From positions 220 to 32,524 of the forward strand of contig JAPPFO010000025.1 in NCBI GenBank assembly GCA_028875175.1: a DNA stretch of 32,305 nucleotides. Direction: 5' to 3'. The DNA comes from Chloroflexota bacterium. Its GTDB lineage: Bacteria > Chloroflexota > UBA11872. Of the stretch, positions 21,827 through 24,592 are shown in pieces (the first letter of the stretch is position 1; every line of letters starts with the position of its first letter). Made by a program: the position numbers and the translations under genes. A model generated the notes under the pieces. The model searched no databases, had not been told where the DNA came from, and was given only the letters and a program-made list of their open reading frames with translations.

Positions 21827-22606
21827 CTGACCAACCCCGCCTACGCCTTCGGCGACGACGACACCGCCGCCGAACGCCTGCGCATGCTCGCCTACGTCTT
21901 TGCGCCCGAGATCAAGAGCTTCCTGGGCCGCGTCCCGCCCGACCCCAGGCTGGTGATCGACCTCGGCTGCGGCCCCGGCTTCACCACCCGCCTCATCGCC
22001 GAGACACTCAACGCCCGCAAGACCGTCGGACTCGACACCTCCCAGCCCTTCTTGGACATTGCCGGGAGCGAACTCACTGACGGCCTTGACTTCCTTCATC
22101 ACGACGTCACCAGGGCGCCCTTCCCTACCGGCGCCGCCGACGTGCTCTTCTGCCACTTGCTGCTGCCGCACCTCGCCGACCCCGCCGCCGCGCTGCGGAC
22201 CTGGGCCTCCCAGCTACGACCCGCCGGCCTCCTTCTGGTCGACGAGGTATCTGACATCCACACCACCAACCCAACCTTTCGCACCTACCTTGACGCCGCC
22301 GAAGGTCTACTCGAAGGAATCGGCGGCGACCTTTACGTCGGCCGCCGTGTCGAGCAACTCGGCCGCGTCCCCGGCCTCCGCCGCATCTCCAGCCGCCTCG
22401 TCAAACACCCCGTCGCCACCGCTGCCTGCGCCCGCATGTTCCGCCTCAACCTCAACGCCTGGGGCCAAAACCCCCACGCCGCCCTCTCCGACCACGACCG
22501 CGCCAATCTCGGCGCCGACCTCGACAACCTCACCACCTCCCCCGCCACCACCGACATCCACTGGCAAATGCGCCAGGTCACCTTCAAAGCCACCACAGGC
22601 AGCTAG
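21827..22606 (+). CDS. Class I SAM-dependent methyltransferase
   Basis: VIDLGCGPGFTTRLIAETL, VGLDTS, ADVLFCHLLLPHLADPAAALRTWASQLRPAGLLLVDE. The frame is open upstream of the ATG at 21884 to a CTG at 21827 encoding TNPAYAFGDDDTAAERLR. Confidence 0.85.
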   Translation: MTNPAYAFGDDDTAAERLRMLAYVFAPEIKSFLGRVPPDPRLVIDLGCGPGFTTRLIAETLNARKTVGLDTSQPFLDIAGSELTDGLDFLHHDVTRAPFPTGAADVLFCHLLLPHLADPAAALRTWASQLRPAGLLLVDEVSDIHTTNPTFRTYLDAAEGLLEGIGGDLYVGRRVEQLGRVPGLRRISSRLVKHPVATAACARMFRLNLNAWGQNPHAALSDHDRANLGADLDNLTTSPATTDIHWQMRQVTFKATTGS

Positions 22607-22650
22607 CCGGCACCACCTTGCCCGCGCTCTAGTACAATCACCCAAAGGTT

Positions 22651-22707
22651 CCCCCCCGATGACAAGAGCCCAAGGGGCTCTCTCCGGCAACGGAGTAGTC
22701 GGGGGGG
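22651..22707. ncRNA. Candidate structured RNA element (three-way junction) adjacent to a DUF3800 gene
   Basis: P1 22651-22660/22698-22707 (CCCCCCCGAT with GTCGGGGGGG, one G-U); P2 AGAGCCC-AAG-GGGCTCT (22665-22681); P3 CTCCG-GCAA-CGGAG (22682-22695, GNRA loop on + strand). Strand not certain; + favoured by the GCAA loop. Confidence 0.6.
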
Positions 22708-22727
22708 TCGCACTTTAATTTGCCCAA

Positions 22728-23390
22728 CTAGGAGCGCCGCGCCGTCAAACGCTCGAGGCTCGCAACATCGCTCGACATTGCCGGACGAATCTTGTCGAAA
22801 TAGCCCGAGTCACCTCTCTCGAATCTCCGAAATACTGCCCAGCACAAGTAATCCGCGACTTGTAGCCCATAGTGAGCTCGCGAGTCATGATGCAGGACGC
22901 GAAAGATCGGACGGTTGGGCAGTAACTCGGACAGCGCAGACCTGACAGACTTCTCAATCGCCTTTCGGCGGCTTCGCAGCGGAACCAGATCGGCAATCAC
23001 GATTACCTCTTTGGCCGTGGACTCCATCGTTCCAGATAGGACGCGACCAATCAGCGAACTGAGCATCTCGGCATAGAGCCGTTCGCTGCTGGACTGCGAG
23101 GAACGAGCCGCTCGCTTCTCAGAAATGAGCGAGTGAACGCTCATTTCTGCGAGATGGGCGCCGATGATGTCGAACACCTTGCGTCGAACATGTCGGTTGT
23201 CGGTGGAACAGTGAAAACGCTCGTGATCGATCCCGTACTCGAGGCAGTCGTACTTATATGCATCCAGCGCCTGATACATCGCAAACGGCCGCTTCATGCT
23301 CACGCTCGTCAGCACGAAGTGGCGAGTCCCGTGCGCGCTGAAGTCCAGGTTCCCTGACTCGTCCAGGAATATGTAAACGCAATCGCTCAC
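22728..23390 (-). CDS. DUF3800 domain-containing protein (RNase H-like fold predicted)
   Basis: N-terminal YIFLDESGNLDF, central VIVIADLVPLRSRRKAIEKSV, C-terminal LQVADYLCWAVFRRFERGD, the DUF3800 acidic motif layout; GTG start. Confidence 0.82.
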   Translation of the reverse strand: MSDCVYIFLDESGNLDFSAHGTRHFVLTSVSMKRPFAMYQALDAYKYDCLEYGIDHERFHCSTDNRHVRRKVFDIIGAHLAEMSVHSLISEKRAARSSQSSSERLYAEMLSSLIGRVLSGTMESTAKEVIVIADLVPLRSRRKAIEKSVRSALSELLPNRPIFRVLHHDSRAHYGLQVADYLCWAVFRRFERGDSGYFDKIRPAMSSDVASLERLTARRS

Positions 23391-23566
23391 CGGCGGCCCA
23401 GGCCCTTTCCTGATCGCTGTCCTGCCAGACAGCGCATCCCGACACTAGGAAGGTGCCCAGGGACTCCGAGCTGACCGCACGGATCACTGGCGCACCCCGC
23501 GTACCCGCCCGGCGGCTCATCGCCGCAATCCGCGTATCATGCCCCACACCGCACCGGCGCCACCCC

Positions 23567-24592
23567 ATGAACCTCGACAGCCGCACCTGGGACGCCCGCT
23601 ACGGCCGCGGCATCCTGGCGGCCCACGGGCCTCAATACACCGACTACATCGCCATCACCTCGCCCAGCGCCTGGGCGGTCGCCGAGCCTCACTTACCCCA
23701 TCCGCCACGCGCCCTTGAGTACCAGCGCGGCATGGGCCAGGACTACCTGGAAGACCTGATCCGGCGTCTCCCTGATGCCGAAGTCGTCCTCGCCATCGGC
23801 GGCGGCAACGCCCTCGATGTCGGCAAGGTCGCCGCCTGGAAGCTCGGCAAGCCCCTCGTCATGATCCCCACCATCGTCTCCACCGGCGCCATCTTCCAGG
23901 CCCCCGTCGCCTTCCGCCGCGAGCCCGTCTGGCAGTTCTACTTCGACACCATCGCGCCCGAGTACCTGATCCTGGACTTCGACGTCATCGCCGCCGCGCC
24001 CCCGCACCTCAACCGCGCCGGCATGGGCGAGTGCATCTGCCTCCTCGGTCACGTCGGCTCCTGGCGCTGGTGGGCCGACAACCGTTCCGACGGTGTCCCT
24101 TGGGACCAGTCCGCGGCCGACGAAACGATGGCCTGGATCCGCCGCCGCTGCGCCGAGTTCGCCGCCGGGCTCGACGCCCGGGGCCGCCCCAACGACGACG
24201 CCCTCCGCATCGCCAGCGAGGTCAACCGGGAGCGTTACGACATCCCCACATACGACCTCAAGGTCTCCCACAGCATCGACCACACTTTCGTCATGGCCTT
24301 CGAGTGGGTCCACAGCTACGAGCTCATCCACTCCGAAGTCGTCTCCCTCGGCGCCCTCATCAACGCGTACGTATACGAGTGGGGCTTCGACGAAACCAGG
24401 GCGCTGCTCGACGCCTGCCAGGTCCGCTACCGCCCCGCCGACATCGGCTGCACCTGGGACCAGGTCCGCGCCGTCCTCGCCAACCTCAACGAGCTCAACG
24501 ACCGCCTCGGCCACGGCCAAAACTGGTTCCATCTCAACTCGCTTTCCGACCAGTCGTTCCAGCAAATGGCGGCCGCGATCGACGCGCCCTGA
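23567..24592 (+). CDS. Iron-containing alcohol dehydrogenase / glycerol-1-phosphate dehydrogenase-like (dehydroquinate synthase-like fold) protein
   Basis: EVVLAIGGGNALDVGKVAAWKLGKPLVMIPTIVSTGAIF; NRAGMGECICLLGHVGSWRWW; HSEVVSLGALI. ATG at 23567 preferred over ORF start 23453. Confidence 0.78.
   Translation: MNLDSRTWDARYGRGILAAHGPQYTDYIAITSPSAWAVAEPHLPHPPRALEYQRGMGQDYLEDLIRRLPDAEVVLAIGGGNALDVGKVAAWKLGKPLVMIPTIVSTGAIFQAPVAFRREPVWQFYFDTIAPEYLILDFDVIAAAPPHLNRAGMGECICLLGHVGSWRWWADNRSDGVPWDQSAADETMAWIRRRCAEFAAGLDARGRPNDDALRIASEVNRERYDIPTYDLKVSHSIDHTFVMAFEWVHSYELIHSEVVSLGALINAYVYEWGFDETRALLDACQVRYRPADIGCTWDQVRAVLANLNELNDRLGHGQNWFHLNSLSDQSFQQMAAAIDAP

What the first reader, a model, noticed from the sequence alone, without database searches (positions are those of the whole stretch)
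22644..22715. Compact three-way-junction structured element immediately beside a DUF3800 gene
The sequence folds almost completely: a 10-bp closing stem (22651-22660/22698-22707), a 7-bp hairpin with AAG loop (22665-22681) and a 5-bp hairpin with GCAA loop (22682-22695), no nucleotides between the two inner helices, and GACA and TA joining strands. It lies 20 bp past the DUF3800 stop codon, between convergent genes. A TACAAT hexamer at 22633-22638 would place a + strand start close to the element, though no good -35 is visible. Several structurally different RNA motifs named DUF3800-I and onward have been reported near DUF3800 genes, so this may be a member of that group or a new class. It does not look like a simple terminator.
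Basis: partly seen in the sequence, partly recalled or inferred. Interest (0 to 1): 0.85.

Follow-up and report, generated by a model that had tools for sequence, protein, structure and literature searches.

The report
Small RNA paired with DUF3800 nuclease
A 74-nucleotide RNA gene with a strictly conserved three-way-junction fold lies head-on against a gene for a predicted RNase-H-like nuclease; the pair recurs across several bacterial phyla, often inside restriction-modification loci, and the public RNA library does not recognise this version.

Summary
It is the core of a ~74-nt RNA (22643-22716, + strand) also found in other Chloroflexota, Pseudomonadota, Nitrospira and Latescibacterota. 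G-U polarity, GNRA loops, a -10 box at near-fixed distance and a U-rich 3' end indicate + strand transcription, towards DUF3800. All 17 distinct homologous DUF3800 loci found by protein search carry the RNA, convergent, usually within 25 nt of the stop codon. Rfam does not recognise the window RNA, but bridging members match RF02968 (DUF3800-IX), which shares architecture and placement: this is an unrecognised sister subclass of DUF3800-IX. DUF3800 is predicted RNase-HII-like. RNA-only loci are common; DUF3800 of this clade without the RNA was not seen. Many loci are type I restriction operons or defence hotspots. Best mechanism, inferred and untested: the RNA binds and restrains the nuclease as an RNA antitoxin (about 50%).

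The parts
22643..22716 (+). The RNA: conserved 74-nt unit (CAAAGG ... CUUU), sister subclass of DUF3800-IX
   Evidence: Sharp conservation limits; model match 95.5 bits, E 1.8e-25; covariation
22633..22638 (+). -10 box TACAAT of the RNA's promoter
   Evidence: TANNNT ends 4-7 nt upstream of the RNA in 30 of 41 members, 0-6 in other 4-nt bins
22651..22707 (+). Closing helix P1, 22651-22660 with 22698-22707
   Evidence: Fold; 8 of 10 pairs change on both sides in A9
22661..22664 (+). Joining strand GACA
   Evidence: Invariant in the ten closest members; aligns with the 4-nt joining strand of RF02968
22665..22681 (+). Hairpin P2, 7 bp, AAG loop
   Evidence: 4 of 7 pairs change on both sides
22682..22695 (+). 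Hairpin P3, 5 bp, GNRA loop
   Evidence: 5 of 5 pairs change on both sides; loop GCAA, GCGA or GAAA in close relatives
22696..22697 (+). Joining strand UA
   Evidence: Conserved in A4 and in the RF02968 consensus
22708..22722 (+). 3' tail; terminator-like U-run in most homologues, weak in the window
22728..23390 (-). DUF3800 gene (220 aa), convergent with the RNA; predicted RNase-HII-like fold
   Evidence: PF12686 E 9.2e-16; model pLDDT 83; Foldseek best hit RNase HII E 4.5e-6
21884..22606 (+). Flanking methyltransferase gene, left border of the variable site
   Evidence: Pfam; syntenic in 11 relatives
23567..24592 (+). Flanking Fe-ADH-like gene, right border of the variable site
   Evidence: Pfam; syntenic in 10 relatives

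Best explanation
The element is a stand-alone small RNA gene with its own -10 promoter, a rigid three-way junction and a terminator-like 3' end, transcribed from the + strand towards a convergent DUF3800 gene. It is a sister subclass of the DUF3800-IX RNAs. RNA and DUF3800 form a two-part module. Most likely (inferred) the folded RNA binds the RNase-HII-like DUF3800 protein and keeps its nuclease in check, as RNA antitoxins do in type III and AbiF systems, and the nuclease is freed when the RNA level falls, for instance in phage infection. Shown here: the RNA, its probable strand, covariation, homology and linkage. Inferred: binding, inhibition, toxicity, trigger. The confidence given is for the mechanism; for a conserved + strand RNA of the DUF3800-IX kind it is about 0.93.
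For: 17 of 17 distinct DUF3800 loci found from the protein side carry the RNA, convergent (for proteins; 56, 62, 76 for RNA). Asymmetry: RNA without DUF3800 in at least nine loci and RNA beside truncated DUF3800 in three, the reverse never seen in this clade. Two to six RNA copies in some loci. RNase-H-like fold. Defence setting: type I restriction loci, variable site with defence genes. RNA and protein distances correlate, Spearman 0.79. Precedent: the abiF RNA motif beside AbiF was shown to be an RNA antitoxin binding the toxin (PMC12373285). DUF3800 has a PADLOC defence model, DUF3800_VII, matched weakly.
Against: No binding, toxicity or phage data. The layout differs from type III systems, where the antitoxin lies upstream in one operon with a single promoter (PMC5086642). 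Most loci have a single RNA copy. Solo RNAs may have other roles, since some lie beside other genes (TIR, unknown). Co-inheritance of close neighbours alone can give the distance correlation.
Confidence: 0.5

Rival explanations
1. The RNA is an activating or guiding cofactor: DUF3800 works only as a ribonucleoprotein with the RNA as scaffold or guide, rather than being inhibited by it.
For: Same obligate linkage; a TPR-DUF3800 protein accompanies some Cas12a2 systems and was suggested to act in interference or crRNA handling (PMC10910872).
Against: No variable guide-like segment: the joining strands are conserved and variation is in paired columns. Solo RNAs without the protein are unexpected for a mere cofactor.
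Confidence: 0.22
2. The RNA acts in cis or as antisense on the overlapping 3' end of DUF3800 (and hsdR) transcripts, as in convergent type I toxin-antitoxin pairs.
For: Convergent overlap at near-constant distance; in restriction loci the RNA lies antisense to the operon.
Against: Antisense action needs no conserved junction or compensatory changes; RNA kept where no DUF3800 is near.
Confidence: 0.13
3. It is a DNA element, such as a hairpin end or recombination site of a mobile unit, not an RNA gene.
For: Patchy spread across phyla, solo and multiple copies, variable insertion site.
Against: G-U 51 against A-C 5 on the + strand, GNRA loops, -10 box and U-rich tail; 1-3 copies per genome in most.
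Confidence: 0.07
4. It is an ordinary terminator between convergent genes.
For: GC-rich stem with U-rich tail in most homologues.
Against: Loops and joining strands conserved across phyla; solo copies between co-directional genes; no U-run on the other strand.
Confidence: 0.03

Closest known systems
DUF3800-IX RNA (Rfam RF02968)
   Same: Same three-way junction: 10-11 bp closing stem, 4-nt joining strand, 7-bp hairpin, 0-1 nt, 5-bp hairpin, UA, U-rich tail; convergent with DUF3800-like genes in L153-L155; bridging members score with both models.
   Different: The window RNA and its close relatives are not recognised by the Rfam model; strongly conserved primary sequence (CAAAGGUU, GAUGACAAG, CAAGG, GUAGUC) of its own.
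DUF3800-III and DUF3800-V RNAs (RF02962, RF02964)
   Same: Convergent, just downstream of DUF3800 genes of other clades.
   Different: Longer models (108 and 96 positions); model R3 does not match the RNAs at those loci.
AbiF with its RNA antitoxin (abiF motif RF03085) and type III toxin-antitoxin systems
   Same: Structured small RNA coupled to one nuclease gene; proposed way of working.
   Different: There the RNA is upstream in the same operon (PMC12373285, PMC5086642); here it is downstream, convergent, with its own promoter; the protein fold is different.
RNase HII
   Same: Predicted fold of DUF3800; DE at the end of the first strand, as in the RNase HII DEAG motif (recalled, not aligned here).
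   Different: 10-14% identity and TM about 0.54: fold likeness only.

Membership tests
DUF3800-IX RNA (RF02968) | Score at or above the Rfam gathering cut-off (36.8 bits) | tested here: not met
   No match for the window element even at E 10; bridging member L100 46.2 bits, L146 copies 30.7 and 26.6
DUF3800-IX RNA (RF02968) | Three-way junction with long closing stem, 7-bp and 5-bp hairpins, 4-nt and UA joining strands | tested here: met
DUF3800-IX RNA (RF02968) | Homology by profile continuity | tested here: met
   R3 finds L155 (5.1e-5), L158 (1.1e-4), L159 (1.1e-3), none used to build it; the most distant RF02968 members are not reached
DUF3800-IX RNA (RF02968) | Association with DUF3800 genes | tested here: met
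   17 of 17 protein-first loci
Type III toxin-antitoxin system | Antitoxin RNA upstream of the toxin in one operon, separated by a terminator | tested here: not met
   RNA downstream and convergent in all loci; definition from PMC5086642
Type III toxin-antitoxin system | Tandem repeats of the antitoxin RNA | tested here: inconclusive
   One copy in the window; two to six copies in L113, L119, L111, L186
Type III toxin-antitoxin system | Endoribonuclease toxin neutralised by the RNA | not testable with these tools
   Needs expression and binding assays
RNase-H-like nuclease (DUF3800) | RNase-H-like fold with acidic residues | tested here: met
   Fold by Foldseek; D10, E11, D180 invariant and D134 at least 90% in A6; activity not tested

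The most novel reading that the evidence does not exclude
DUF3800 plus its convergent three-way-junction RNA is an RNA-restrained nuclease system, a toxin-antitoxin or abortive-infection module with an RNase-H-fold toxin, placed inside type I restriction loci as a guard that fires when restriction is defeated; RNA-only loci are anti-addiction remnants. The convergent placement also seen for DUF3800-III and -V suggests that DUF3800 RNAs in general work this way.
Probability: 0.35. Interest if true: 0.82.

Novelty: new variant of a known kind. Interest (0 to 1): 0.62.

Why it matters
DUF3800-associated RNAs have been catalogued but, as far as the held literature shows, not explained. This subclass is invisible to the current Rfam model, spans several phyla, is tied to one DUF3800 clade at near-fixed distance and orientation, and often sits in restriction loci. 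The asymmetry (RNA often alone, this nuclease never seen without the RNA) turns the open function into a direct test: is DUF3800 toxic without the RNA? It also gives sequences with which to extend the Rfam family.

Tried and rejected
Known Rfam family by direct scan: none in the window. Second copy in the own genome: none. Element in E. coli genomes, phages or plasmids by DNA similarity: none, although the plasmid DUF3800 homologues do carry divergent copies. The impression after that the RNA is unrelated to DUF3800 (solo copies in the variable site) was overturned by the wider loci. Matches discarded as false: L098, L099, L101 (coding or repeat-like, no DUF3800) and L122 (only the pattern, no fold). 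MAFFT alignment of the most divergent members failed (A8) and was not used. Simple terminator rejected on conservation and strand grounds. The founding paper on DUF3800 RNAs and the retron classification paper are not in the held library, so their content is not relied on.

Full report
OBSERVATION. 22649-22709 folds at -39.3 kcal/mol as + strand RNA, z -4.98, and the MFE structure is the three-way junction. The conserved unit is 22643-22716: CAAAGG at the 5' end, the junction, and CUUU at the 3' end.

CLOSE RELATIVES. In the window's class (41 genomes held) a near-identical element occurs in 10 genomes, nine of one genus and one of another family, while the orthologous DUF3800 gene occurs in four. 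In the genus the space between a methyltransferase gene and a Fe-ADH-like gene is a variable site: very short in G017; an AbiL/RloB-type pair without the RNA in G016; the RNA alone in G008 and G010; a RAMA+HSDR_N gene followed by the RNA in G015 and G012 and, by position, in G009; the RNA with convergent DUF3800 in the window, G011, G013 and G014 (cargo). Sequence identity stops sharply at both ends of the element, so it is under its own constraint. In G025 the RNA lies elsewhere, beside a convergent gene without Pfam match.

DISTRIBUTION. A covariance model from these ten (R1; search) and an exact pattern scan found the RNA in Propionivibrio, Vulcaniibacterium, Tepidimonas, Sideroxydans, Pseudoxanthomonas, Sedimenticola, a Rhodocyclales MAG, Nitrospira, Latescibacterota and other Chloroflexota. 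In most of these a DUF3800 gene ends just beyond the RNA in opposite orientation.

COVARIATION. In 28 members 98.0% of cells form standard pairs and 11 of 26 pairs change on both sides (shuffled mean 2.4); versions slid by 1-3 columns fall to 48-64%. In 22 more diverse members 21 of 26 pairs change on both sides. These alignments were fitted to the model, which favours the structure, but most divergent members also fold this way, or nearly so, on their own.

STRAND AND ENDS. On the + strand the paired columns hold 51 G-U and 5 A-C cells, about half of the G-U cells at one near-invariant U-G pair. The P3 loop is GCAA, GCGA or GAAA in the window's close relatives, always GNRA when read on this strand. 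TANNNT ends 4-7 nt upstream of the RNA in 30 of 41 members, against 0-6 in other 4-nt bins, and 30 of 41 have a U-rich 3' end. The RNA is therefore most likely transcribed from its own promoter, towards DUF3800.

LINKAGE TESTED FROM THE PROTEIN SIDE. DUF3800 homologues were found by protein search without regard to the RNA: four in the class, Phaeobacter and Ruegeria plasmids, four viral-labelled contigs, and strong hits (E below 1e-20) in 330 genomes of the phylum and 378 of the class of the Tepidimonas genome. All 17 distinct loci have the RNA, convergent, down to 30% protein identity. Two are imperfect: in L165 the RNA match is partial, and in G108 the DUF3800 gene is split into two matches. 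Weaker DUF3800 hits belong to other clades; several of those carry DUF3800-III or -V RNAs, also convergent. In 21 loci the gap from stop codon to RNA is -3 to 22 nt, and RNA and protein distances correlate (Spearman 0.79, 0 of 5000 permutations). This shows co-inheritance; by itself it does not prove contact.

ASYMMETRY. RNA without a homologous DUF3800 nearby: G008, G009, G010, G012, G015, G025, L111 (three-copy array beside a convergent DUF1883-TIR gene), L114 and L191. Truncated DUF3800 with intact RNA: L106, L109, L118. For G008, G009, G010, G012 and G015 no homologue was found anywhere in the assembly, but these are incomplete MAGs.

RELATION TO KNOWN RNAs. The window RNA has no Rfam match, nor do its closer relatives. 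But L100, found with R1, matches RF02968 DUF3800-IX at 46.2 bits (gathering 36.8), and two copies in L146 match it at 30.7 and 26.6 bits. The RF02968 consensus has the same architecture. R3, built with two RF02968 members among its rows, finds three further ones, L155, L158 and L159, at their exact places; the most distant RF02968 members are not reached. RF02968 members in L153-L155 also sit convergent to DUF3800-like genes, while others (L150, L156) do not. The window RNA is thus a sister subclass of DUF3800-IX, not a formal member.

PROTEIN. The AlphaFold2 model of the window DUF3800 (pLDDT 83, pTM 0.85) is closest to RNase HII (1eke, E 4.5e-6, TM 0.54); there is no sequence-level PDB relative. 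This agrees with an earlier prediction of an RNase H fold for another DUF3800 protein (PMC10910872). D10, E11, H60, K92, Q177 and D180 are invariant in A6.

CONTEXT. In the proteobacterial loci the DUF3800-RNA pair lies next to hsdR inside a type I restriction locus: Pfam confirms hsdR, hsdS or hsdM for L104, L119, L140, L141, L189, L190 and L192 (layout); L105 and L120 look the same by inspection. PADLOC holds a DUF3800_VII defence model that matches weakly (about 1e-6 to 1e-7); its name recalls type VII retrons, known to me only from memory.

MECHANISM. Best supported: the RNA binds and restrains the nuclease. Shown: RNA, probable strand, homology, linkage; predicted: RNase-H fold. Inferred: binding, inhibition, toxicity, trigger. 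The abiF RNA, once also only a motif beside a defence gene, was shown to act this way (PMC12373285), which makes the inference reasonable but does not establish it here. A cofactor or guide role (0.22) and an antisense role (0.13) remain open.

Noticed in passing
window 23117-23152: Inverted repeat (15-nt arms, 93% complementary, 6-nt loop) inside the DUF3800 coding sequence.
   Followed up: no
window 22607-23566 and L079, L081, L085, L086: The methyltransferase/Fe-ADH intergenic site is a variable site with defence-type cargo in this genus: RAMA+HSDR_N gene, AbiL/RloB-like pair, DUF3800, or empty.
   Followed up: partly
L186 2385-5141: Six copies of the RNA over 2.8 kb, interspersed with Lipase_3-type genes.
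   Followed up: partly
L111 4939-6280: Array of three good RNA copies and one weak one between hsdR and a convergent DUF1883-TIR gene, without DUF3800.
   Followed up: partly
L083 7103-8467: 454-aa protein without Pfam or PADLOC match, convergent with the RNA in the place where DUF3800 usually stands.
   Followed up: partly
L119 5616-5695 and L191 4502-4578: A second, divergent RNA type lies directly before hsdR; in L191 it is present without DUF3800.
   Followed up: partly
L169, L170, L177, L178, L179, L183: DUF3800-III and DUF3800-V RNAs also lie convergent just downstream of their DUF3800 genes.
   Followed up: partly
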